Source of the DNA: JBGPLH01 sp041486365 [NCBI: Thermodesulfobacteriota bacterium]
GTDB taxonomy: Bacteria; JAUYMQ01
Direction of reading: 5' to 3'
DNA length: 13,319 bases
NCBI GenBank assembly: GCA_041486365.1
Contig: JBGPLH010000055.1
Location: forward strand, 1-13,319
The notes below the pieces were generated by a model. The model did not search any database. It was not told the DNA's origin and saw only the letters and a list, made by a program, of their open reading frames with translations. The position numbers and the translations under genes were made by a program. Positions 159 through 10,314 of this stretch are shown here, in pieces (the first letter of the stretch is position 1; each line of letters starts with the position of its first letter).

Positions 159-913
159 GAGGCCTTCTTCTCGACCCGACGGACGATCCGCGGCAGGACC
201 TCGGTCGCGGATCCGAGCAGTGTCAGATCCGCCACGCCCCCGGTGAGGTGCGTCGGCTCGAGGTTCACCTCGATCACGCGCGCGCCGCGCCGGTGGGCGG
301 TGATGGGGATGTCCCCGGCTGGAGCAACCTCCGCGGTCGTCCCGATGACGAGAACCAGGTCGGTGCGCAGGACCTGATCCTGCGCGCCGCGGACAGCCTT
401 CTCGGGAATCGGCTCGCCGAAGAGGACGACGTCGGGCTTGAGCACCGCGCGGCACTCGGGGCAGCGGGGCGGGAAGCGATCGGGGCGCATGGTGGTCCGC
501 GGGAAGGGGCCGTGTCCGGCCAGGCAGACCAGCCGTTCGCCGCTTCCGTGAAACTCGATCACCTCCTTCGATCCGGCGCGCTGGTGGAGACCGTCAACGT
601 TCTGCGTGATCACCGCGCGCAGCCTCCCCAGCTCCTCCAGCCGCGCCAGCGCCCGGTGTCCCGCGTTCGGCTCGCTTCCTTCAATGATCGCGCCCAGCTC
701 CCGCAGCATCTCCCAGACCCGCTCCGGATCCTCGATGAAGGCGTCGATGTGCGCGTACTCCATCGGGTCGTAGCGGTCCCAGAGCCCCTGGGCGCCTCGA
801 AAGGCGGGGATCCCGCTGTCCACGCTGATCCCCGCGCCGGTGAGCGCGATGGGGCGGTCGGCTGTCACGATGAGTCGCGCGGCTTCGTCGATCTCGCGCG
901 GGGAAACGATCAC
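155..913 (-). CDS. cobB: Sir2-family NAD-dependent protein deacylase (sirtuin)
   Basis: A 252-residue cytoplasmic sirtuin of usual bacterial length. It would remove acyl groups from protein lysines using NAD+, releasing nicotinamide and O-acyl-ADP-ribose. Visible motifs are GAGISVDSGIPAFRG (26-40, NAD loop), TQNVDGLH (103-110), the catalytic His in EFHGSG (H122) and a late Rossmann segment IGTTAEVAPAG (190-200) where most sirtuins read GTS. The zinc site is odd: the second pair is normal (C151-P-E-C154), but the first pair reads C130-L-A-G-H134 instead of CxxC, so His134 would have to act as the fourth ligand or zinc is lost. The start ATG has no clear Shine-Dalgarno but lies about 80 nt downstream of a strong promoter (1003-1031). 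The gene is followed by a LarA-type gene with a 4-bp overlap. Acyl preference cannot be read from sequence. Confidence 0.9.
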   Translation of the reverse strand: MIVSPREIDEAARLIVTADRPIALTGAGISVDSGIPAFRGAQGLWDRYDPMEYAHIDAFIEDPERVWEMLRELGAIIEGSEPNAGHRALARLEELGRLRAVITQNVDGLHQRAGSKEVIEFHGSGERLVCLAGHGPFPRTTMRPDRFPPRCPECRAVLKPDVVLFGEPIPEKAVRGAQDQVLRTDLVLVIGTTAEVAPAGDIPITAHRRGARVIEVNLEPTHLTGGVADLTLLGSATEVLPRIVRRVEKKAS

Positions 914-1002
914 GGGCGCGCTCGCGCGGCAATGGGGGGTATGGAATCGATGGGCTCGTCCAATCGGGATGACCGGAAAGTGGGGAGAATGCGCCCGGCC
1001 TC

Positions 1003-1031
1003 ATCCTAGGCATGCCCCCGGAAAGCGTCAA
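1003..1031 (-). promoter_or_regulatory. sigma70-type promoter for the sirtuin-larA operon
   Basis: On the minus strand TTGACG (1031-1026), a 17-bp spacer and TAGGAT (1008-1003) form a near-consensus promoter. The predicted transcription start is near 996, leaving a leader of about 80 nt before the sirtuin ATG at 913. It sits back to back with the amidase promoter, the two -35 boxes being about 27 bp apart. Confidence 0.65.
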
Positions 1032-1058
1032 GGCGCAATGGCGCCGGATCGGCGTGGC

Positions 1059-1087
1059 TTGAGGGGCCGGCGGGCTTGATCTAGGCT
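1059..1087 (+). promoter_or_regulatory. sigma70-type promoter for the Nit1-like amidase
   Basis: TTGAGG (1059-1064), a 17-bp spacer and TAGGCT (1082-1087). The predicted start is about 1094, so the leader would be only about 16 nt and would begin with the Shine-Dalgarno AAAGGAG (1094-1100), 9 nt before the ATG at 1110. Confidence 0.6.
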
Positions 1088-1109
1088 CGATCCAAAGGAG
1101 CCGATCACC

Positions 1110-1955
1110 ATGCGCATGCGGGTCGCCGCGATCCAGATGACGAGCACCGCCGACCAGGTCTCGAACCTCCGGCAGGCGGAAGGCCTGCTCGCGGAGGCCG
1201 CCGCGACGGACGCCGCCCTCGCCGCCCTTCCGGAGAACTTCTCCTGTCTGCGCTCCGAGGGAGATCCGCTCCCGAAGCCCGAGCCCTTCGCGCCGCCGGG
1301 TGACGAAGGGGGCGGCGGCGGGGTGACCGCATGGCTTCGCGATCAGGCGCGGCGCCACGAAATGTGGATCCTCGGCGGCACGGTTCCCGAATCGCTCCCG
1401 TCCGGCGCGGGTGACGCGCGCGTGTACAACACGAGCCCGCTCGTCGATCCGTCCGGACGCGTGACCGCGCGCTACCGGAAGATCCACCTCTTCGACGTCG
1501 CCATCCCGGGCGGCCCGATCCACGAGGAGTCGAAGACGGTCGCGCCCGGCGACGCCCTCGTGCTCGCCGGTACCCCCTTCGGCCCCGCGGGACTCTCCGT
1601 CTGCTACGACCTGCGTTTCCCCGAGCTGTACCGTGCGCTCGCCCTCCGGGGCGCCGGGATCCTCTTCGTGCCCTCCGCCTTCACCGCGCACACGGGCAAG
1701 GACCACTGGGAGCCGCTCCTGCGCGCCCGCGCCATCGAGAACGGCTGCTACGTCGTGGCCCCCGCCCAGGTGGGCCGCCACTCGCCCACGCGCGCGTCGC
1801 ACGGCCACGCGATGATCATCGATCCCTGGGGAACGATCCTCGCCCAGGCCCCCGACCGCCCCGCCGTCGTGCTCGCCGATCTCGACACGGACGACCTCGA
1901 TCGCGTGCGCCGCGCGATTCCCACGCTCGCTCACGTAAGGCGCGACCTGTTCTGA
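1110..1955 (+). CDS. Carbon-nitrogen hydrolase, Nit1-like (probable deaminated-glutathione amidase)
   Basis: A 281-residue member of the nitrilase superfamily. The Glu-Lys-Cys triad is visible: E42 in LPENFS, K124 in YRKIHLFD and C165 in GLSVCYDLRFPELYRAL. The segment RKIHLFDVAIPGG followed by ES-KTVAPGD (about 123-148) is typical of the Nit1/YbeM group, which hydrolyses the side product deaminated glutathione to 2-oxoglutarate and cysteinylglycine (metabolite repair). Length fits that family, and no signal peptide is present, so it is cytosolic. A glycine-rich insert (GDEGGGGG, 64-71) is unusual. The start is set by AAAGGAG (1094-1100) 9 nt upstream. The gene is divergent from the sirtuin and convergent with the Nudix gene, 30 bp separating the two stop codons. 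The superfamily is certain; the substrate is by family analogy, and related omega-amidases cannot be ruled out. Confidence 0.9.
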   Translation: MRMRVAAIQMTSTADQVSNLRQAEGLLAEAAATDAALAALPENFSCLRSEGDPLPKPEPFAPPGDEGGGGGVTAWLRDQARRHEMWILGGTVPESLPSGAGDARVYNTSPLVDPSGRVTARYRKIHLFDVAIPGGPIHEESKTVAPGDALVLAGTPFGPAGLSVCYDLRFPELYRALALRGAGILFVPSAFTAHTGKDHWEPLLRARAIENGCYVVAPAQVGRHSPTRASHGHAMIIDPWGTILAQAPDRPAVVLADLDTDDLDRVRRAIPTLAHVRRDLF

Positions 1956-1985
1956 TAGGGATCGGCGCGCGCCCCGCCCGCGTCG

Positions 1986-2621
1986 CTACTCTTCGCGTTC
2001 GGGAGCCTTGAAACCGTAGGCCAGCTCGAGAAGCTGGATCAGGATCTTTGCCGTGGCGCCCCAGACGACGTGGGGCCCGAGGTGGAAGAAATACGTCCGA
2101 TAGGGCTTTCCCTCGTGCTCCAGGCGAGCCGAGACGCGGAGCTTCTCGGGTTTCAGGAACGCCTCGAGCGGCGCCTCGATCATCTCGGCGATCTCGCGCT
2201 CGCTCACGCGGAACGGATAGGGGTGAGGAATCATCCCCACGTAGGGGGAGACGATGTAGTCGGTGACGGTCAGCAGGTCGTCCAGTTCCCCGAGGATCCG
2301 GACGTCCTCGGGCGCGAGTCCGATCTCCTCCTCCGTCTCACGCAGGGCCGTGTGCAGGAGGCTGGAATCCCCAGGGTCCCGGCGGCCTCCGGGAAAGGAG
2401 ATCTGGCCCCCGTGGGAGCGCATCTCCTCCGTCCGGAGGGTCAGGAGCACGTGCGGCGCGCCTCCCTTCTCGAAGAGGGGGACCAGCACGGCGGCGCGGG
2501 TCAGGCGCGGCCGACCCTGTCCGGCCTCCCTCCCCTCCGGGCGGAAGGGATGGGCCTCGGCGTCCTCGGGAATCACCCGTTTCGTCCGGCCCGCCAGCAC
2601 GCTCCCTATCCTGTGCTTCAC
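1986..2621 (-). CDS. nudL: Nudix hydrolase, NudL-type CoA pyrophosphatase
   Basis: A 211-residue cytosolic Nudix protein. The CoA-specific signature upstream of the Nudix box is present as LLTLRTEEMRSH and then GGQISFPGG (59-79). The Nudix box follows (G79 onward, ending RETEEEIGL at 94-102). Asp85 occupies the first acidic position where the general consensus has Glu, as is usual in this subfamily; E95, E98 and E99 are kept for metal binding. Such enzymes cleave CoA and its derivatives to 3'-phosphoadenosine 5'-phosphate and 4'-phosphopantetheine. The start is a GTG (2621-2619) chosen because GGGGGGA lies a few bases upstream on the minus strand; no better in-frame start is near. The gene transcribes away from the hairpin array and converges on the amidase. 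Substrate is inferred from the signature. Confidence 0.88.
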   Translation of the reverse strand: MKHRIGSVLAGRTKRVIPEDAEAHPFRPEGREAGQGRPRLTRAAVLVPLFEKGGAPHVLLTLRTEEMRSHGGQISFPGGRRDPGDSSLLHTALRETEEEIGLAPEDVRILGELDDLLTVTDYIVSPYVGMIPHPYPFRVSEREIAEMIEAPLEAFLKPEKLRVSARLEHEGKPYRTYFFHLGPHVVWGATAKILIQLLELAYGFKAPEREE

Positions 2622-3169
2622 GAAATCCCCCCGGGATTCCCACCCCCCGATGGCCTTCCACCCCCTAGCTCATCCACGGAAGAGGAAGGTTCTCCCGGTT
2701 CAAGGTTTGCGCTCAATCCTCCGATACACAGGGAAGAGCGGGGCCTCCCCCCTCCGGCCGGAGGTCCCGGGCGAAGCCCGGGCCGACAGGATTCTGCCGA
2801 AGGTTCCGGGCGAAGCGCGGGCCGACGGTAAACTGGTGGAGTGGACCCGGATTTTCTAGCACGCCAGCCGTCCCACGCCGTCTCCCGCCCGAAGGGCGGG
2901 CCGACAAGATCCGACCGGAGGTCCCGCGCGCAGTGCGGGCCAACAAGATCCGACCGGAGGTCCCGCGCGCAGTGCGGGCCGACAAGACCGGAGCTCCCGC
3001 GCGTAGTGCGGGCCGACAAGATCCGACCGGAGGTCCCGCGCGTAGTGCGGGCCGACAAGATCCAAATGGATGAGAGGTCCCGCCCGGGGGGGCGGGCCAC
3101 CAGGATCTCCAAAGGATCGGCGTGACCAGGTGGCCGGGCGCCGGCAGCTGCATTCAGGGGAGTCGTCTC
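2622..3169. other. Divergent intergenic region holding a hairpin array
   Basis: This 548-bp gap lies between the start of the Nudix gene (minus) and the start of the PilT-like gene (plus), so it must hold promoters for both, but no convincing -35/-10 pair is visible on either strand. The part from 2622 to about 2755 shows no recognisable gene or RNA. From 2761 to 3100 it is filled by the hairpin array described separately. The only clear translation signal is GGGGAG (3157-3162) in front of the PilT-like ATG. Confidence 0.7.
2761..3100. repeat. Array of eight short GC hairpins with a 39-bp period
   Basis: Eight copies of a core with 5' arm, 3-4 nt loop and 3' arm, followed by CC and usually GACAAG, then a linker GATCCGACCGGAGGT. 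5' arms begin at 2766, 2805, 2884, 2923, 2962, 2996, 3035 and 3079, giving steps of 39, 79, 39, 39, 34, 39 and 44 bp; the 79-bp step suggests one decayed copy. Arm pairs are CCCGGGC/GCCCGGG (copy 1), CCCGCCC/GGGCGGG (copies 3 and 8), CCCGCGC/GTGCGGG with one G-T wobble (copies 4-7) and an imperfect pair in copy 2. Loops are GAA, GCA, GTA or GGGG. Both arms change together while the linker stays nearly constant. The steps of 34 and 44 bp break any reading frame, so the array is not coding. No REP-associated transposase is in the window. Confidence 0.9.
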
Positions 3170-4318
3170 ATGGACAGGGAAAAGCTCAACCGTCTTCTCA
3201 GGCTCGGCTTCGAGAAGGGGGCTTCGGATATCCACTTCCAGGTGGGTTACCTCCCCCTCTATCGATTCAACGGGGACCTGATCGAGCTGAAGTACAAGGT
3301 CCTCGCCTCGGAGGACACCGCCGCGATCGCCGAGATGCTGATGGAGAGCGAGCGCAAGCGATTCGCCGAGGGGTTCAACGAGCTCGATCTCGCCTACGAG
3401 ATCCCCGGCGAGGGGCGCTTCCGCGTGAACATCTCCCGGGAGCGGCGCAACTACAACATCGTCCTGCGGGTCATTCCGCTCCAGATCCGTCCCTTCGACG
3501 AGCTGAACCTCCCCCGCGTCATCCGCGACATCACGAATCTCCGCCGCGGCCTCGTGCTGGTCACCGGCCCCACGGGCATGGGCAAGAGCACCACGCTTGC
3601 CGCGATGGTGCACCACGTCAACAAGACGCGGAAGACCAAGATCGTGACGGTGGAGGACCCCATCGAGTTCGTGTTCCAGCACGAGCGCAGCATCATCACG
3701 CAGCGAGAGATCGGCACCGACACCGACACCTTTGCCACCGCCCTGCGGGCCGCTCTGCGCCAGGATCCGGACGTGATCATGGTCGGCGAGATGCGCGACA
3801 TCGAAACGGTGGACACCGCCCTCAAGGCCTCCGAGACGGGGCACCTGGTGCTCAGCTCGATCCATACGAACGACGTCGCCAAGACGATCGGGCGGCTCCT
3901 CTCCTTCTTCCCGCCGGAGGAGCAGACGAGCGTGCGCATGCGCCTGGCGGACAACCTCATGGCCGTGATCAGCCTCCGGCTCCTCATGAACAAGAAGGAG
4001 ACGGGACGGATCCCCGCGGTCGAGGTGATGCGGATCACGCGGACGATCCAGGAGTGCATCAAGGATCCCAAGCGAAGCCACGAGATCGTCGATTTCATCG
4101 CGAAGGGACGATCCGACCACGGGATGCAGACTTTCGATCAACACGTGCTCGATCTGTACCGCGCCAACAAGATCAGCCTGCAGACGGCCAGGGCGGCCGC
4201 CACCAATGTGGCCGACTTCGAGACCCAGCTCACCCTGGAGGGGGAGACCACGCCGCCTCCGACCGAGGAACGGGACGGCGTCATGGTGCTCGACGACGAG
4301 ATCAACGAACGCTTCTAG
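3170..4318 (+). CDS. PilT-like type IV pilus retraction ATPase
   Basis: A 382-residue hexameric secretion-type ATPase of the PilT group, cytoplasmic, expected to act at the inner-membrane base of a type IV pilus. In order: N-terminal PAS-like domain with GASDIHFQVG (17-26), Walker A GPTGMGKST (133-141, Met where Ser is usual), Asp box VTVEDPIE (159-166), Walker B QDPDVIMVGEMRD (198-210), His box GHLVLSSIHT (224-233), and the PilT-like C-terminal GMQTFDQHVLDLY (318-330). The AIRNLIRE motif needed for retraction in classical PilT is not kept: the equivalent region reads TIQECIKD (292-299). An acidic tail ending VMVLDDEINERF extends past the usual end. The ATG at 3170 is chosen because GGGGAG lies 7 nt upstream; an in-frame GTG at 3122 lacks one. 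It leads the signalling cluster. It could be a PilT/PilU paralogue rather than the main motor. Confidence 0.9.
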   Translation: MDREKLNRLLRLGFEKGASDIHFQVGYLPLYRFNGDLIELKYKVLASEDTAAIAEMLMESERKRFAEGFNELDLAYEIPGEGRFRVNISRERRNYNIVLRVIPLQIRPFDELNLPRVIRDITNLRRGLVLVTGPTGMGKSTTLAAMVHHVNKTRKTKIVTVEDPIEFVFQHERSIITQREIGTDTDTFATALRAALRQDPDVIMVGEMRDIETVDTALKASETGHLVLSSIHTNDVAKTIGRLLSFFPPEEQTSVRMRLADNLMAVISLRLLMNKKETGRIPAVEVMRITRTIQECIKDPKRSHEIVDFIAKGRSDHGMQTFDQHVLDLYRANKISLQTARAAATNVADFETQLTLEGETTPPPTEERDGVMVLDDEINERF

Positions 4319-4384
4319 CCCGCGGATCCACGCGCCTCTTTCCGAGCCCGGCCGCCAGACGCCGGCAGCCGCCGCGAGACGACC

Positions 4385-6127
4385 TTGCCACCGACGCCGT
4401 CCCTGGACCTTACGACCCTGACGCGCATGCTCGATCACGCGTCCGTGGCGGTGATCCTCGCCGACGCGTCCGCCGCCATCTGCTTCGCGAGCCGGCCCGC
4501 CGGGCGCATGGCGGCCCGTCCCGTCGATGCGCTCCTCGGCCTGGCCCTCCACGACCTGCTCCCCGCCGACCGGCGGGACGCTTTCGCTGCCCGGTGGAAG
4601 GAAGCCTGCGCCGGGGGCGCGGTGGCCGGGGTCGAGACGGAGATCCAGCGGGCCGACGGCCAGCGGACCCTCGTGGAGATCGATCTCCTGCCGATGCCCA
4701 CCCCCTCGGGCGCCTGCGTGCAGGTGAACCTCCGCTCGCTGGCGGCGATCAGGTCGGCGCAGGCCCAGACCGAAGAGGCCGCGGCCGAGCTCGCCAAGGA
4801 GCGGCGCGCACAGGCGGCCTTCCTCGGGATACTCCAGCTTCTCAATGAATCGACGGACCCCGCCGCGATCCTGCGCGTGGGGTTGACGGACTCGGCCAAG
4901 GCCGTGGGCGCCCAGCTCGGATACCTCTACACGCTCGACGCGAACAGGGCGCCGCGGCTTGCGGCGCGGTACGCGCCGGGCGAGTCCAAGGGCCCGGCCC
5001 CGTCGGCCTGGGCGAAGGGCATAGCGGCCCGGGTCATCGAGACGGGGAAAGCTGCGATTCCCGATGCCGTCCCGGCAGACGCCGATCTCACGATCCGGAC
5101 GGGCCGGTGGGAGAAGCGGCCCACCGGCGTGGCATCCTTCCCGCTTCGCTTCCGCGACGATATCCGCGGGGTCCTCCTCCTCGCCGGACTCCGCCCCTTC
5201 GGCCCCGAGGACCTGCGGCTCATGCAGATCCTCGCCAACCAGATCGCCTTCGCACTCTCCAACGCCGAGACGCTGCGCAGCGCCCAGGCGATGGCCGAGG
5301 AACTGGCGGAGAAGAGCCGGCGCCTGGAGGGACAGAGCGACGAGCTTCTGCGCAAGAGCGAGGAGCTGTTCAGCCAGGACATCACGCTGATCAAGCAGCA
5401 GGAAGCCCTCGGCAAGATCGACAAGCTCAAGGCGGATCTCCTCGAGAAGATGTCCCGGGAGCTGCGCACGCCGCTGAACCGCATGATCTCCCATCTGATC
5501 GCCGTGCTCACCAACGATGAAGAGCGGATCTCCTCCGAGTCGGTGGAGCACCTCCGCTCGGCCCTCGGAGACGGGACCGCCTTCTCGCGCACGCTCTCGA
5601 ACCTGGTGGACCTGTGGCGGATCCGGGAGGGGCAGCTTCAGCCGGACTTCAAGCTCGTTCACTTTGAGGCGATCGTGGAAGAGGCGGTGCACCACGTGGC
5701 GCAGCTCGCGCGCGACCGGCAGGTGGACGTCATCCGGGACATCGAGGGGGTCACCGATCCGATCCGCACCGATCTTGCGAAGATCACCGAGGTGATGACG
5801 GAGGTGATCGGCAACGCGGTGAAGTTCACTTCCAAGGGCGTCGTCCGGATCACCGCATCCACCGGACAGGGATCCCTCATCTGCCAGGTGGTCGATACCG
5901 GGATCGGAATCGCGCCCGACGATATCGAGCACGTGTACGACGAGTTCTACCAGGTGGACGAATCGGGAGACCGGGGATTCCACGGCGCCGGCCTGGGGCT
6001 CTGCATTGCCAAGCGACTGGTCGAGCTGCTCCAGGGGACGATCACGATCGAGAGCGAGATCGGTGAGGGGACCACCGTCACGATCTCGCTGCCCGGGCAT
6101 CCCTCCGCCGAGGGGGCCCCGGCGTGA
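4385..6127 (+). CDS. Soluble PAS-GAF histidine kinase-like protein lacking the phosphoacceptor histidine
   Basis: 580 residues with no membrane segment. Domains: PAS (about 12-118), GAF (about 150-293), a coiled coil (about 295-345), a HisKA-like dimerisation helix pair (about 346-415) and a HATPase_c domain (about 425-572). ATP-binding motifs look complete: E473-x3-N477 (N box), DTGIGI (504-509, G1), GAGLGL (534-539, G2) and GEGTT (560-564, G3). The H box reads KMSRELRTPLN: R358 (codon CGG, 5456-5458) replaces the autophosphorylated histidine of the standard SHELRTPLN. It therefore probably binds ATP but cannot autophosphorylate in the usual way; H370 is the nearest histidine. The start is a TTG (4385), preferred over ATG 4427 because the ATG would clip the first PAS helix, but its ribosome site is weak. 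It lies 66 bp after the PilT-like gene and overlaps the next gene by 4 bp. No receiver domain is encoded nearby. Confidence 0.88.
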   Translation: MPPTPSLDLTTLTRMLDHASVAVILADASAAICFASRPAGRMAARPVDALLGLALHDLLPADRRDAFAARWKEACAGGAVAGVETEIQRADGQRTLVEIDLLPMPTPSGACVQVNLRSLAAIRSAQAQTEEAAAELAKERRAQAAFLGILQLLNESTDPAAILRVGLTDSAKAVGAQLGYLYTLDANRAPRLAARYAPGESKGPAPSAWAKGIAARVIETGKAAIPDAVPADADLTIRTGRWEKRPTGVASFPLRFRDDIRGVLLLAGLRPFGPEDLRLMQILANQIAFALSNAETLRSAQAMAEELAEKSRRLEGQSDELLRKSEELFSQDITLIKQQEALGKIDKLKADLLEKMSRELRTPLNRMISHLIAVLTNDEERISSESVEHLRSALGDGTAFSRTLSNLVDLWRIREGQLQPDFKLVHFEAIVEEAVHHVAQLARDRQVDVIRDIEGVTDPIRTDLAKITEVMTEVIGNAVKFTSKGVVRITASTGQGSLICQVVDTGIGIAPDDIEHVYDEFYQVDESGDRGFHGAGLGLCIAKRLVELLQGTITIESEIGEGTTVTISLPGHPSAEGAPA

Positions 6128-7428
6128 GCGCCGAGCACCCGCCCTTCGCCCGCCTCGGCACGGACACCCTGCTCTTCCGCCGCGGCGCGCCGTCCCGCTC
6201 ACTCCGGCCCGAGGGAAGTACCGAGGCCTTCCTCGCCGGCGATCTCTCGCGCATCGACGCTGCCGACCTCATCAACTTCGTGAACGTGATCCGCCTCAGC
6301 GGCATGCTCCTTCTCTTCGAAGGGTCCCGCGAGCGGGCTCTGTATTTCCACCGGGGCGAGACGGTGTTCGCGGCGACGAACGATCCCGACGAACGGCTGG
6401 GCGAGGTACTCGTGCGCCTGGGGCGGATCAATCACCGCCAGCTCGAGGAAGTGGGGAAACAGTTCAAGGCGGGGAAGATGCGGATCGGGCGCTTCCTCGT
6501 TACCCAGGAGCTGATCAGCCCCCAGACCCTCTGGGAGGGCCTGCGCGAGCAGGTCCGCGAGATCTTCTTCAGCTCCATGGCGGCGCGTCGGGGCGAGTTC
6601 TGCTTCCTCGACGCGAGACGGCCGGAGGAGGCGGAGCTCAACCTCTCCCTGTCCACGCGCAATCTTCTCCTCGAAGGGGTGCAGCGCAAGGACGAGCTGG
6701 ACCACTATCGGAAACGGATTCCGGACGACGACATCATCTTCGCGCGGCGAAGCCCGCTCCCCAGCAAGGAACTCTCTTCGAACGAGCGGAAGGTGCTTCG
6801 CCTCGTGGACGGGAAGACCAGCATCACCCAGCTCTCGATGCTCTGCCAGGTGGACCGGTTCACCACGCTCAAGACGCTCTTCCACCTGACCCAGGCCGGC
6901 TTCGTCGAGATGGTTCCGACGGAACCCGCGGCGCCGCGCCGCGAGGTCCCCGCGCCCGCGGCCCTCTCCGGCGCCTTGCCCGCGCCGGTCTCCGCCACCG
7001 TGAGCCAAGCGCCGCCGCTGGGCGCGTCGCCCACCGGGTCGCCGGCGGGCGCGTCGCCGGAGGGCCGCCTCCGGGAGGTCATCGGGGTCTTCAACGTGAT
7101 CTACGCCGAGATTGTCCTTTCCCTCTCCCACACGATGCCGATCGAGGGGACGATCAAGACGCTGAACGCCTTCTTCCACAACCTCGAGCCGCCGCTCGAA
7201 TCCGTGTTCCGCGGGGTGAGGATCAACTCCGATGGCACGCTCGACGCGAAGACACTGCTCCGCAACATCGATCGGACGCCTCCGCCGGAGCGCGCGGATC
7301 TTCTCACTTCCGCCCTGAAGGAGTTCTTCTTCTTCTCCATCTTCGAGGCCACGAGCCGGCTCGACCCCGCCGGCGAGCGGGCCCTTCTCGAACGCGTCCA
7401 GGCACTCCAGAACGACCTGCGCTCCTGA
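6124..7428 (+). CDS. PATAN (DUF4388) domain protein
   Basis: 434 residues, no signal peptide. The N-terminal half (about 34-190) fits the PATAN/DUF4388 family: FLAGDLSRIDAADLINFV, then GMLLLFEG, LYFHRGETVFAA and LGEVLVRLGRI, followed by a helical part ending GEFCFLD. Residues 217-265 look like a small winged helix (LSSNERKVLRLVDG through LTQAGFVEM). A Pro/Ala-rich linker (266-313) joins this to a helical C-terminal domain (314-434) of no recognised family. PATAN proteins are signalling adaptors; in cyanobacteria PATAN response regulators act on pilus ATPases. The start GTG (6124) overlaps the kinase-like gene's stop as GTGA, indicating translational coupling. With the PilT-like ATPase at the head of the cluster, a role in pilus control is a reasonable inference. 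No receiver domain or DNA-binding residues can be assigned with confidence. Confidence 0.85.
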   Translation: MSAEHPPFARLGTDTLLFRRGAPSRSLRPEGSTEAFLAGDLSRIDAADLINFVNVIRLSGMLLLFEGSRERALYFHRGETVFAATNDPDERLGEVLVRLGRINHRQLEEVGKQFKAGKMRIGRFLVTQELISPQTLWEGLREQVREIFFSSMAARRGEFCFLDARRPEEAELNLSLSTRNLLLEGVQRKDELDHYRKRIPDDDIIFARRSPLPSKELSSNERKVLRLVDGKTSITQLSMLCQVDRFTTLKTLFHLTQAGFVEMVPTEPAAPRREVPAPAALSGALPAPVSATVSQAPPLGASPTGSPAGASPEGRLREVIGVFNVIYAEIVLSLSHTMPIEGTIKTLNAFFHNLEPPLESVFRGVRINSDGTLDAKTLLRNIDRTPPPERADLLTSALKEFFFFSIFEATSRLDPAGERALLERVQALQNDLRS

Positions 7429-7439
7429 CATTGCTCCGC

Positions 7440-7445
7440 TAGAAT
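7440..7445 (+). promoter_or_regulatory. Possible -10 element (TAGAAT) before the secreted helical-repeat gene
   Basis: TAGAAT lies 12 bp past the stop of the PATAN gene and about 107 bp before the next ATG. It matches the TAGNNT -10 boxes elsewhere in the window, but no -35 box is found at 17 bp. It may be chance, or the downstream gene may be read through from the cluster. Confidence 0.3.
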
Positions 7446-7552
7446 GCGTCCCTCCCCCGCGCCGAGCGCGGCCGCGGTCGGCCATCGCCCGTCGGTCCCC
7501 GGCGGCGCGAGGGCCGACGTTGACCAGGCGCCGTGGGGCAGGACCCGGCGTC

Positions 7553-8362
7553 ATGCGGACGATCATGGAAAAGCGCAGGCAAACCGGCGCCAAGGTGCTC
7601 GCGCTGGCGATGGCGCTCTTGCAGGTCGCCGCGGCCGCCGCGTCGCCGCAGGGGCCGATCGGACGTCTCGACACGGAGGCGAAGACACAGTGGCTCCGGC
7701 GCGACGAGCCCTCCGGTGCCCGGGCCTCGGTGGCGCTGTACGATCGCATGTCGGCCATCGAGCCCGGCCGCGCCGAATACCAGGTCGCGCTCGCCCGCGC
7801 CCTGTGGTGGCACGCGATGATGCGACCGGCCACCGCCACGGTGGAACGACGCGCGCTCTTCCGGCGGAGCATCGACGCCGCTCGCCGGGCGCAGCGCCTG
7901 GCACCTCTGGATCCGGGGGGCTTCTACTGGGAAGCGGCGAGCCGGGCGCAGGCGGCCGCCGAGGGCGGCGGCCCCGTCGCGCCGCGGGAGATCTGGCGCA
8001 TCCGGACGCTCGCCGTGAAAGTCCGAGCGTTGAATCCGTGGTACCACCACGGCTCGATCCGCATGGTGGAGGCCGAGCTGATCCTCGGGATGCCCGGGTG
8101 GGAGCGCTGGATCACGGGAGAGGGCCCGCGGCGCGCCGTCGATCTCGTGGTGGAATCCCTCGGCTTCGAGAACAACTGCTTCTACGGCCACTGGGTGCTG
8201 GCCCGGGCGCTCGAGGCCTCCGGTCGTCGCGGCGCCGCGATCGCCCAGCTCGATTTCATCCTGCGCGGAAAACCCGAGGCCTTCCTTCCCGACGCTCCGG
8301 AGAACCGGGCGGTGCAGCGCTGGGCGGCCCCGCTGCGCGCGCGGCTTGCGGGATCCCCCTGA
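7553..8362 (+). CDS. Exported protein with TPR-like helical repeats, unknown function
   Basis: 269 residues from the ATG at 7553, which has AGGA (7540-7543) 9 nt upstream; an upstream in-frame TTG at 7520 is less likely. A signal peptide is visible: basic start MRTIMEKRRQTGAK, hydrophobic core VLALAMALLQVAAAAA, and likely cleavage near residue 31. The mature part is mostly helical with TPR-like spacing, for example ALYDRMSAIEPGRAEYQVALARAL (61-84), SIDAARRAQRLAPLDP (106-121) and HWVLARALEASGRRGAAIAQL (213-233). Such proteins are usually periplasmic or outer-membrane scaffolds. No enzyme motif is present. It follows the PATAN gene by 124 bp on the same strand, so it may or may not belong to that cluster. 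The function is not recognised. Confidence 0.7.
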   Translation: MRTIMEKRRQTGAKVLALAMALLQVAAAAASPQGPIGRLDTEAKTQWLRRDEPSGARASVALYDRMSAIEPGRAEYQVALARALWWHAMMRPATATVERRALFRRSIDAARRAQRLAPLDPGGFYWEAASRAQAAAEGGGPVAPREIWRIRTLAVKVRALNPWYHHGSIRMVEAELILGMPGWERWITGEGPRRAVDLVVESLGFENNCFYGHWVLARALEASGRRGAAIAQLDFILRGKPEAFLPDAPENRAVQRWAAPLRARLAGSP

Positions 8363-8382
8363 CACGCGCTTTGGACCCGGCG

Positions 8383-8391
8383 TGGTAGGCT
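8383..8391 (+). promoter_or_regulatory. Extended -10 promoter for endonuclease III (leaderless start)
   Basis: TGG followed by TAGGCT (8386-8391) gives an extended -10 element, the same hexamer as the amidase promoter. No -35 box lies at 17 bp, as is tolerated by extended -10 promoters. By the usual spacing the transcript would start at 8398, the A of the nth start codon. Confidence 0.45.
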
Positions 8392-8397
8392 CCGCGC

Positions 8398-9078
8398 ATG
8401 CCTACGCGCAATCCCCGGCCCGTCACGTCGCAGGACCTTCCGGCCCTGCTCGCGAAGATCCGCCGCGCTTCACGCGCCTGGCGGCTGCCGAGTGTGTCCC
8501 AGATGGCGCGGGACAGCCGCGACCCCTTCCGCGTGCTCGTGGGGTGCATCCTATCCCTGCGTACCCGCGACGAAACCACTGTCCCCGCATCGGAGCGCCT
8601 CTTCGCCCTGGCGGACTCGCCCGAGGCGCTCGCGCGGCTTTCGCCCCGCGTCATCGAGCGCGCCATCTTTCCGGTGGGTTTCTATCGTACCAAGGCGCGA
8701 CGGCTTCCCGCCCTCGCCCGAACGCTTATCCGCCTGCACGGCGGAAAGGTGCCCGACTCCCTCGAGGAGCTGCTCGCGATCAAGGGCGTGGGCCGCAAGA
8801 CGGCCAACCTCGTCGTCACCGTAGCTTTCGGGAAACCAGGCATCTGCGTTGACACCCACGTCCACCGGATCAGCAACCGTTGGGGACTCGTGCGCACCAG
8901 GACCCCCGACAAGACGGAGTTCGCGTTGCGCGATGTGCTGCCGCGCCGTTACTGGATTGCCTACAACGATCTCCTCGTCCCCTTCGGCCAGCGCATGTGC
9001 CAGCCGCTCTCGCCGCGGTGCAGCGCCTGCCCCATCGCCGATCGTTGCCCGCGTATCGGCGTCACGCGATCCCGTTGA
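8398..9078 (+). CDS. nth: Endonuclease III (DNA glycosylase/AP lyase)
   Basis: 226 residues, the usual size. It removes oxidised pyrimidines from DNA and cuts at the abasic site in base excision repair. The helix-hairpin-helix LLAIKGVGRKTANLVV (125-140) carries the catalytic lysine K134, and the catalytic aspartate is D152 in CVDTHVHRISNRWG. A complete [4Fe-4S] motif C201-x6-C208-x2-C211-x5-C217 is at the C-terminus. The substrate-loop segment ILSLRTRDE (51-59) matches the Nth group rather than MutY. The ATG at 8398 has no Shine-Dalgarno, and an extended -10 element (8383-8391) places the transcript start on the ATG itself, so the mRNA may be leaderless. It lies 35 bp downstream of the exported-protein gene. 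The assignment is firm; exact lesion preference is not readable. Confidence 0.95.
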   Translation: MPTRNPRPVTSQDLPALLAKIRRASRAWRLPSVSQMARDSRDPFRVLVGCILSLRTRDETTVPASERLFALADSPEALARLSPRVIERAIFPVGFYRTKARRLPALARTLIRLHGGKVPDSLEELLAIKGVGRKTANLVVTVAFGKPGICVDTHVHRISNRWGLVRTRTPDKTEFALRDVLPRRYWIAYNDLLVPFGQRMCQPLSPRCSACPIADRCPRIGVTRSR

Positions 9079-9139: not shown

Positions 9140-9145
9140 GTGCGC

Positions 9146-9321
9146 GAACTGCCCGGTACGCGATGGCCGATTGAAATTTCTACCCTAGTTCGAAAGAAAC
9201 GGGATCCGTCCCTCGCCGTCGAGCGTCTCCCGCCATGCGGGAAACCGGACACGGCGACATGGAACCCACCTGGTAACCCAGGGTTTAAATTCGTCGGTCA
9301 CGACGGCCAGGGTGGTTCACC
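9146..9321 (+). ncRNA. ssrS: Probable 6S RNA (SsrS)
   Basis: A non-coding unit of about 175 nt between a strong promoter and an intrinsic terminator. It folds as a long rod. The ends pair as GAACTGCCC (9146-9154) with GGGTGGTTC (9310-9318). Next come TGGCCGA (9164-9170) with TCGGTCA (9294-9300), and GAAATTT (9173-9179) with AAATTC (9287-9292), one A bulged. A large internal bubble follows, with a small hairpin CCTGG-TAAC-CCAGG (9269-9282) on its 3' side. The apical arm closes with TCGCCGT (9213-9219) and ACGGCGA (9251-9257) and ends in CCCGC-CAT-GCGGG (9229-9241). The 3' bubble hairpin and its context (CACCTGG, then CCAGGGTT) resemble E. coli 6S RNA (CACCTTG, then CAAGGGTT). 6S RNA mimics an open promoter and sequesters sigma70 RNA polymerase, mainly in stationary phase. 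The usual neighbour genes are absent. No covariance-model search was possible. Confidence 0.8.
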
Positions 9322-9326
9322 AATGA

Positions 9327-9356
9327 AAAGCCCCCGGCGCGGAAGCCGGGGGCTTT
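9327..9356. terminator. Bidirectional intrinsic terminator
   Basis: A perfect 12-bp stem: AAAGCCCCCGGC (9327-9338), loop GCGGAA, GCCGGGGGCTTT (9345-9356). On the plus strand it ends in CTTTCTTGTCTT and would terminate the 6S-like RNA; on the minus strand it ends in CTTTTCATTGG and lies 24 bp beyond the stop codon of the PEP-CTERM gene. Confidence 0.85.
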
Positions 9357-9380: not shown

Positions 9381-10067
9381 TCAGCGCCGCCGTCGGGCGG
9401 CCGCCAGCCCCGCGAGCCCCGACGCGAGCAGGAGCAACGAGGCGGGCTCGGGGATCTGGAACTGTCCGCTGACCGGTCCCTCGGCGTGCACGTTGAAACC
9501 GTCGATCCGCTTGCCGGGCGCGCTCGAGCTCACCAGCGTGAGCGCCATCGCGCCCGCCGTCGTGCTGCTGTTGTTCGCGTACTCGGTGATGAAGCGCGAG
9601 TTGAGGCCCTGGTTGAGCAGCGTGAACCAGTAGTTGTCCAGGGAGAAGCCGAGGTTCAGCGTCACGATCCCGTCGGTCGTGTTGACCCCCGGATCGAACG
9701 TGATGTTCGTCAGGCTCCCGTTGATGTACAGGCCCTTCCCCGCCCCGATCGTCACCTTCCCGTCCAGGAAGGTGAAAGGATCCGTGAGCGACTCCGTAAG
9801 TTTCGAGAACTTGACCTTGGCGCCGATGATCGATTCGAAGGACGTCTTGGCGGTCACCACGGACCCGTCCGTGTACCGAACCGCCACGACGCTGCCCGGC
9901 GTGAAGGCGAGCGTGCCCGGCTTGCCCCCCTTCGTGGGGTTGAACTTGAACTTGCTGACGGTGAAATAGAGCTGAGGATCGACGGTTGCCGAGATCGCGG
10001 CTGCAGGGATGGCTACGGCCACGAGCAGCGCGAGCGCTGCCAGCGCCAGGTGCCGGCGTCGCATCAT
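9381..10067 (-). CDS. PEP-CTERM sorting domain-containing exported protein
   Basis: 228 residues from the ATG at 10067, chosen because GGGAGG (10080-10075 on the minus strand) lies 7 nt upstream; longer in-frame starts have no such site. An N-terminal signal peptide (MMRRRHLALAALALLVAVAI, cleavage near PAAAISA) leads into a beta-rich middle part with many Thr, Ser, Asn and Gly residues and no known domain. The C-terminus is a textbook PEP-CTERM tag: PEP at 206-208, a hydrophobic stretch LLLLASGLAGLAAA, then RRRR at the very end. Exosortase (EpsH/XrtA) cleaves such tags in the inner membrane; these proteins are usually sent to the surface in exopolysaccharide or biofilm producers. No exosortase gene lies in the window. 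The gene runs toward the 6S-like RNA and shares its terminator. Function of the middle part is unknown. Confidence 0.92.
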   Translation of the reverse strand: MMRRRHLALAALALLVAVAIPAAAISATVDPQLYFTVSKFKFNPTKGGKPGTLAFTPGSVVAVRYTDGSVVTAKTSFESIIGAKVKFSKLTESLTDPFTFLDGKVTIGAGKGLYINGSLTNITFDPGVNTTDGIVTLNLGFSLDNYWFTLLNQGLNSRFITEYANNSSTTAGAMALTLVSSSAPGKRIDGFNVHAEGPVSGQFQIPEPASLLLLASGLAGLAAARRRR

Positions 10068-10314
10068 GGGCCAACCTCCCTTTCGAGCGCACGGGCTTTC
10101 CGCGGTCGGCCGCCCCAACCATCCGGCCCTCACCGCGGCATTTCAGGTCGCCTGTGGCTCTACAGGGAGTTATCGGCGCGGGAAGCGCCGGCCTTGAGGA
10201 AATAGGCTGTGATCCGGTGGGCTTCAGGCCACGGGCGGACCCGAAGGCAGCGGGGCGGGAGTGATCCCGTTCTCGATAGCAATACAGTAGTTAAATCAAT
10301 GGAATGACTGGAAA

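What the first reader, a model, noticed from the sequence alone, without database searches (positions are those of the whole stretch)
2761..3100. Periodic hairpin array with compensatory stem changes next to a pilus ATPase gene
Eight GC-rich hairpins follow one another at mostly 39-bp steps. The stem arms differ between copies (CCCGGGC, CCCGCCC, CCCGCGC) yet each 3' arm changes to match, while the linker GATCCGACCGGAGG is almost constant. Paired change in arms against a constant linker suggests selection on structure or a transposition-like origin in which the hairpin is the recognised part, as in REP elements. Steps of 34 and 44 bp rule out a coding repeat. The array occupies the divergent gap of nudL and the PilT-like gene, so it may also affect their expression.
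Basis: partly seen in the sequence, partly recalled or inferred. Interest (0 to 1): 0.7.

Follow-up and report, generated by a model that had tools for sequence, protein, structure and literature searches.

The report
Hairpin repeat array in gene leader
A run of eight short hairpin-forming repeats lies between a conserved promoter-like signal and the start of a pilus-motor gene in an uncultured bacterium; it looks like a local, recently grown repeat that lengthens the untranslated start of that gene's message, and whether it regulates anything is untested.

Summary
The array is real: eight GC-rich hairpins in one orientation at window 2763-3098 (steps 39, 79, 39, 39, 34, 39, 44). Two details change. 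The "constant linker" holds only within copies 3-7; across diverged copies the stems are better conserved (80%) than the linkers (50%). Pairing in diverged copies (34 of 35 stem pairs) exceeds neutral decay of a duplicated unit, though only two base-pair columns show paired change. The main new result is position. In 54 of 58 relatives of one order, the PilT-like gene is preceded by TCAAG-N15/16-CCGATA (format of the E. coli sigma-28 promoter) 30-124 bp before its start codon. The window has this motif 449 bp before the ATG, upstream of the array. So the array is probably transcribed as part of the pilT-kinase leader, not merely lying in a divergent gap. No such array was found in the relatives; one has an unrelated 39-bp leader duplication. 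GTAG and CGTC REP criteria are mostly unmet, and dispersal cannot be tested because the host genome is not held. Best reading: a lineage-specific tandem hairpin array in an mRNA leader, grown by duplication, acting (if at all) at RNA level. Stem upkeep by replication template switching is a serious rival. Moderately interesting.

The parts
2700..2726 (+). Conserved promoter-like motif TCAAG-N16-CCGATA (sigma-28 format) of the pilT-kinase operon; its CCGATA starts 449 bp before the ATG
   Evidence: Strict motif in 54 of 58 relatives, 30-124 bp before the start codon, 0 control hits in 95,700 bp; best-scoring site of the whole window, but below every relative's score
2763..2784 (+). Hairpin 1 (GGT clamp, arms CCCGGGC/GCCCGGG, loop GAA)
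2802..2823 (+). Hairpin 2, imperfect (one U.G, one G.G mismatch, loop GAA)
2884..2902 (+). Hairpin 3 (arms CCCGCCC/GGGCGGG, loop GAA; no GG clamp)
2920..2941 (+). Hairpin 4 (arms CCCGCGC/GTGCGGG, loop GCA)
2959..2980 (+). Hairpin 5 (as 4, loop GCA)
2993..3014 (+). Hairpin 6 (as 4, loop GTA; clamp GCT)
3032..3053 (+). Hairpin 7 (as 4, loop GTA)
3076..3098 (+). Hairpin 8 (arms CCCGCCC/GGGCGGG, 4-nt loop GGGG)
2913..3060 (+). Block of two 73-bp double units (copies 4-5 and 6-7): visible recent tandem duplication
   Evidence: TRF period 73, 94%; copies 4-7 stems identical
3170..4318 (+). PilT-like ATPase gene (T2SSE, PF00437), first gene downstream; start codon chosen at the ATG that relatives share
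   Evidence: 76% to best relative
4385..6127 (+). Histidine kinase (PAS, GAF, HATPase), conserved second gene of the operon
   Evidence: a kinase-domain match (39-48%) follows PilT in 10 of 10 relative loci tested
1986..2621 (-). NUDIX hydrolase (nudL-like), divergent neighbour, not found next to pilT in relatives
   Evidence: no tblastn match (1e-8) in 10 of 10 relative loci

Best explanation
A lineage-specific tandem array of about 39-bp units, each a 7-bp GC stem with a mostly GNA triloop and, in six of eight, a GG/CC clamp with a bulged T. It was inserted or grew inside the 5' untranslated leader of the pilT-like/histidine-kinase operon, between its conserved promoter-like motif and its start codon. 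It grew by local tandem duplication: copies 4-5 and 6-7 are the recent rounds; copies 1, 2 and 8 look older, with decayed linkers. If the motif is the promoter (inferred), the pilT mRNA begins with a leader of about 440 nt carrying eight sense-strand hairpins, where relatives have roughly 20-110 nt. The most likely effect, in cis and at RNA level, is altered translation or decay of the pilT-kinase message. Shown: the array, its place relative to the conserved motif, the duplication pattern, retained pairing, absence in the relatives searched. Inferred: transcription through it, and any effect on expression.
For: Motif TCAAG-N15/16-CCGATA in 54 of 58 relatives' pilT upstreams at 30-124 bp (median 65) before the start codon, 0 control hits in 95,700 bp; in the window at 449 bp, with the array between. 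It is the top-scoring site in the window. FliA/WhiG sigma family in 79 of 79 genomes of the order at E<=0.001, 67 over cut-off. No sigma-70-type promoter found by consensus in 2400-3300. Pairing 34 of 35 against about 21 expected at linker-like divergence. Sense-strand bias: + strand RNA fold z -3.54 (0 of 100 shuffles as good), - strand z -1.24 (10 of 100); both imperfect but allowed pair types are G.U on the + strand, hence A.C on the other; 7 against 4 strict hairpins. Recent 73-bp duplication. Independent 39-bp leader duplication in relative G067.
Against: The window's motif is weaker than in all 54 relatives (19.1 against a minimum of 20.5; spacer 16, seen in 2 of 54; T where 47 of 54 have G before CCGATA), so it may be decayed. 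No transcript data. Relatives' leaders show no excess structure (mean z -0.18, n=54, not different from control segments, P=0.39) and as a group no similarity to the unit (mean z 0.18 over 54; best single ones L087 with 1 of 100 shuffles as good, L004 and L130 with 2), so no conserved leader RNA is seen that the array could elaborate. The empty slot in the 79-bp step suggests hairpin number is not tightly constrained. The strand bias rests on about two independent events.
Confidence: 0.5

Rival explanations
1. Neutral minisatellite: the array grew by slippage, and the stems are kept complementary by template switching at quasipalindromes during DNA replication, not by selection on RNA. It happens to lie in the leader and does nothing specific.
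For: Clear tandem duplication; paired changes confined to two adjacent columns near the loop; template switching can fix stem pairing and make multibase compensatory changes (PMC8794818, abstract and outline seen); unit absent from the relatives searched; one slot has no hairpin.
Against: Copies 1, 2 and 8 keep the GG/CC clamp and bulged T (15 of 15) and stems (76%) while linkers fall to 44%; the sense-strand G.U bias is not predicted.
Confidence: 0.27
2. REP-like mobile palindrome: separate insertions of a roughly 24-nt hairpin element mobilised by a REP-associated tyrosine transposase, followed by local duplication.
For: Conserved core with diverging flanks; bulged T in the clamp; the minus-strand sequence just outside the stem reads TGTC or CGTC in 6 of 8 copies (alignment), which resembles the tag of CGTC repeats; Y1 transposase family in 30 of 79 genomes of the order.
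Against: No GTAG tag; all copies in direct orientation and mostly in a 39-bp register, diverged ones included (39 and 79; the last step is 44); no Y1 transposase among the 10 window proteins scanned; 22 two-mismatch hits in 79 relatives against 45 for the reversed control and 0 in genome contigs; 20 Y1-transposase loci of relatives carry no similar hairpin (best E 0.33).
Confidence: 0.15
3. DNA-level or protein-binding element in the nudL/pilT gap (cruciform, repressor or CsrA-type binding array).
For: GGAGG or a close form in most units; eight similar sites.
Against: 39 bp is not a whole number of helical turns (general knowledge). CsrA was found in 22 of 79 genomes: not in the five with full-length pilT matches at 73-76% (G013, G001, G012, G026, G028), but in G016 and G019 at 72%, so this is weak evidence. 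nudL is not a conserved neighbour.
Confidence: 0.06

Closest known systems
REP / BIME elements (GTAG superfamily) with RAYT transposases
   Same: Short GC-rich extragenic hairpins with small loops; a bulge in the stem, as in E. coli REPs, though there it is a two-base mismatch (PMC8266576, passages seen).
   Different: No GTAG tag, direct orientation only, one locus known, no Y1 transposase among the 10 window proteins scanned.
CGTC-tagged palindromic repeats
   Same: On the minus strand an unpaired TGTC or CGTC borders a 7+2-bp stem in 6 of 8 copies; the superfamily apparently lacks a dedicated transposase (PMC3733652, passages seen).
   Different: Loop 3 not 4-5, first stem pairs GC not AT, no CCA tail, tandem direct array instead of head-to-head dimers.
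Bacterial minisatellites (VNTR) in gene leaders (recalled; two searches found no paper on point)
   Same: Tandem direct copies with recent block duplications between promoter and gene.
   Different: The repeat unit is itself a stable hairpin with stems better kept than linkers. Length variation not tested.
Sigma-28 (FliA) promoters
   Same: E. coli consensus TAAAGTTT-n11-GCCGATAA (PMC2859248, passage with Table 1) has the same -10 and, from TAAAG to CCGATA, the same 15-nt spacing.
   Different: Here TCAAG instead of TAAAG; in the order the strict form GTCAAG-N15-CCGATA is at pilT in 46 of 62 sites, and elsewhere about at control level (16 against 15 control hits), so it is not shown to be a general flagellar promoter.

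Membership tests
GTAG REP element | Conserved GTAG tetranucleotide 5' of the palindrome | tested here: not met
   4-mers before the stem are AGGT (6 of 8), AGCT, GTCT on the + strand; the - strand has TGTC/CGTC before the GG clamp in 6 of 8 (alignment)
GTAG REP element | Many dispersed intergenic copies in the genome | not testable with these tools
   Host genome not held; no further hairpin copy in the 13.3-kb window (best other window match E 0.98), only a 14-base partial match with 2 mismatches at 4161
GTAG REP element | RAYT (Y1_Tnp) gene associated with the element | tested here: inconclusive
   None among the 10 window proteins scanned; Y1_Tnp in 30 of 79 relatives, but 20 such loci had no similar hairpin
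CGTC repeat | Unpaired CGTC (or TGTC/CCTC) tag next to the stem | tested here: inconclusive
   TGTC x5 and CGTC x1 of 8 on the minus strand (alignment); not independent, since copies 3-7 are similar recent duplicates
CGTC repeat | Loop of 4-5 nt, AT pairs at first stem positions, CCA tail | tested here: not met
   Loop 3 in 7 of 8, GG/CC clamp in 6 of 8, TCC or TTC at the tail side in 6 of 8 (alignment)
CGTC repeat | Head-to-head dimers predominate | tested here: not met
   8 of 8 in direct orientation
Tandem repeat (minisatellite) | Head-to-tail copies with a regular period | tested here: met
   TRF period 39, 87% matches, score 278, over copies 3-7
Sigma-28-type promoter | -35 TAAAG-like and -10 GCCGATA at 15-nt spacing, with a FliA-type sigma factor in the genome | tested here: inconclusive
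   Motif in 54 of 58 relatives, FliA_WhiG family in 79 of 79; the window site has spacer 16 and T for G; host sigma factors not seen; no transcript evidence
Rfam RNA family | Match over gathering score in the array | tested here: not met
   The only match in the window is 6S RNA at 9143-9322

The most novel reading that the evidence does not exclude
An expandable hairpin leader: the number of hairpins in the 5' untranslated region changes by slippage within the species and tunes, by array length, the output of a pilus-retraction ATPase/kinase operon, giving heritable on-off or graded variation of surface motility through RNA structure rather than promoter spacing or reading frame.
Probability: 0.1. 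Interest if true: 0.65.

Novelty: new variant of a known kind. Interest (0 to 1): 0.36.

Why it matters
Paired arm changes are usually taken as strong evidence of a functional RNA. Here the same paired changes can be set against three testable causes (RNA selection, replication template switching, mobile palindromes) in one array whose copies are of different ages, and whose place in a conserved operon leader is suggested by relatives. It also shows that 'divergent intergenic gap' can be a misleading label when a promoter-like site lies far upstream of the repeat.

Tried and rejected
Array as amplified ancestral leader hairpin: not supported. Some relatives (G001, G002, G012, G013) have a leader hairpin that looks similar by eye, but over 54 leaders the unit scores no better than on their shuffles (mean z 0.18; the best, L087 of G012, has 1 of 100 shuffles as good), and leaders are not more structured than controls.

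CsrA-binding leader: weakly disfavoured, CsrA in 22 of 79 genomes and in none of the five nearest by full-length pilT match.

Coding repeat: steps of 34, 44 and 79 break the frame; coding was not tested further. Similar DNA in plasmids or phages: one marginal hit each, covering 8% and 13% (E 0.3 and 0.4). Blastn of the array against 90 genomes of the class gave short hits in 55, the best E 1.5e-5 over 65 bases in G015 and E 3e-4 in G062; I aligned these locally and take them for GC-rich chance or coding similarity, but ran no control and did not prove it. A covariance model search of 8 whole genomes found nothing, but scored only 150 of 705-8474 candidates per genome, so it shows little. A first hairpin count with one mismatch allowed did not discriminate: 11 in 340 bp in the window, 9-12 in 20 shuffles, up to 16 in other loci; it was replaced by a strict count. 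Stability of GNA loops in DNA (recalled) was searched in papers without a directly useful hit. Searches for leader repeats gave nothing on point.

Rows left out: of 61 listed pilT places at 64% identity or more (whose list was cut below them), 58 were used; G035, G005 and G047 were left out as partial matches. The four relatives without the strict motif (L132, L145, L165, L167) have near forms. An earlier count gave 42 control hits; the recount is 45.

Full report
What is there. The window holds eight hairpins in one orientation between 2763 and 3098. Each is a 7-bp GC stem, in six copies enclosed by a GG/CC clamp with a bulged T. Loops are GAA in copies 1-3, GCA in 4-5, GTA in 6-7, and four G in copy 8. 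Steps are 39, 79, 39, 39, 34, 39, 44. TRF reports period 39 (4.8 copies) and period 73 (2.0 copies, 94%), which marks copies 4-5 and 6-7 as recently duplicated; their stems are identical (84 of 84 positions compared). Seven of the eight are perfect or G.U-perfect on the + strand; 1000 shuffles of the array reach at most four. Hairpin number alone is not unusual in such GC-rich DNA: 3 of 308 strand-scans of other loci also reach seven in 340 bp.

Constant linker or constant stem. That is true only inside the young block. Between copies 1, 2, 3, 4 and 8 the stem is 80% identical and the linker 50%; between 1, 2 and 8 it is 76% against 44%, with clamp and bulge 15 of 15. Copies 1 and 2 still keep the 39-bp register (39, then 79), so the old copies look like remains of one tandem array whose linkers decayed, though separate insertion of a short element is not excluded; copy 8 is off by five (44).

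Is pairing more than duplication gives? Stem pairs form in 34 of 35 cells of the five diverged copies. A star-tree simulation from a perfect ancestor gives about 21 at linker-like divergence (0 of 3000 as high), and P about 0.01 (0.004-0.014) when the rate is set so that the stems themselves are about as diverged as seen. Copies were chosen for having hairpins, and the slot between copies 2 and 3 has none, so the test leans toward structure. Only two columns show paired change (18/27 and 19/26), and the shuffle control on the eight rows is moderate (8 of 500 for cells paired and for the covariation score, 65 of 500 for pairs with double change). Template switching could make the same pattern without selection (PMC8794818, abstract and outline seen).

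Where it is. The host genome is not held. The nearest genomes found share 76% of the PilT-like protein at best, within one order of 79 held genomes; the loci used to enter it (L001-L004) are titled delta proteobacterium or Deltaproteobacteria, two with Myxococcota in the isolate name. I read 900 bases upstream of pilT in 58 of them. In 54 of 58 the motif TCAAG-N15/16-CCGATA (spacer 15 in 52, 16 in 2) stands 30-124 bp before the start codon, median 65; 0 control hits in 95,700 bp. It has the -10 and the spacing of the E. coli sigma-28 consensus (PMC2859248, passage with Table 1), and FliA-family sigma factors match in 79 of 79 genomes (67 over cut-off). The window has the motif at 2700-2726, 449 bp before the ATG, and the array fills most of the difference. 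So the array is downstream of the pilT-kinase promoter-like element and upstream of the start codon: a probable 5' leader. The window's copy scores below all 54 relatives (19.1 against at least 20.5), so it may be weaker or decayed. A kinase match follows PilT in 10 of 10 relative loci, whereas the NUDIX gene is found in none of them, so the conserved side of this gap is the pilT side.

Which strand. The + strand folds better than its shuffles (z -3.54), the - strand less so (z -1.24). The imperfect pairs that still count are G.U on the + strand (copy 2 and the ancestor of copies 4-7). This fits sense RNA, but is about two events.

Distribution. No exact match to the core pattern in genome contigs or viral contigs; 22 two-mismatch hits in 79 relatives against 45 for the reversed control. 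In 54 relatives' leaders a scan for tandem duplications found one, in G067: a 39-bp duplication of its own, different leader. These relatives are too distant to speak for the host's genus.

Comparison. GTAG REPs: tag and orientation not met, dispersal not testable. CGTC repeats: the minus strand shows TGTC/CGTC next to the stem in 6 of 8, but loop, AT pairs, tail and dimer orientation do not fit (PMC3733652, passages seen). Y1 transposases occur in 30 of 79 relatives; 20 such loci show no similar hairpin (best E 0.33). The array is most like a hairpin minisatellite in an mRNA leader.

Verdict. Confirmed array, corrected description, new placement in a probable leader; mechanism at RNA level inferred (0.5), neutral template-switch upkeep next (0.27), REP origin third (0.15).

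Noticed in passing
window 9143-9356 (+): 6S RNA (Rfam RF00013, 67.3 bits) followed by a strong 12-bp hairpin at 9327-9356 that looks like its end.
   Followed up: no
window 10171-10197 (-): Second TCAAG-N16-CCGATA motif, 38 bp upstream of the listed start of a PEP-CTERM protein gene (9381-10133, -); two matches in the window against 0.01 expected.
   Followed up: partly
relatives, order of G013 (79 genomes): GTCAAG-N15-CCGATA has 62 sites in 54 genomes, 46 of them at pilT; the other 16 are about the control level of 15. A nearly pilT-specific conserved promoter-like motif with sigma-28 format is odd in itself.
   Followed up: partly
L140 (G067), pilT leader: Independent 39-bp tandem duplication in the pilT leader starting at the -10 motif, each unit with two small hairpins; L133 and L135, with similar leaders, have one copy by eye.
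   Followed up: partly
G072 (L186, L187, L188): 30 Y1-transposase matches in one genome; three of three loci read carry an ACCGGTCC-loop-GGACCGGT hairpin, a possible REP family of its own.
   Followed up: no
L181 (G001), L184 (G012): Long palindromes with GGGACNGTCCC centre near Y1 transposase genes, possible terminal inverted repeats.
   Followed up: no
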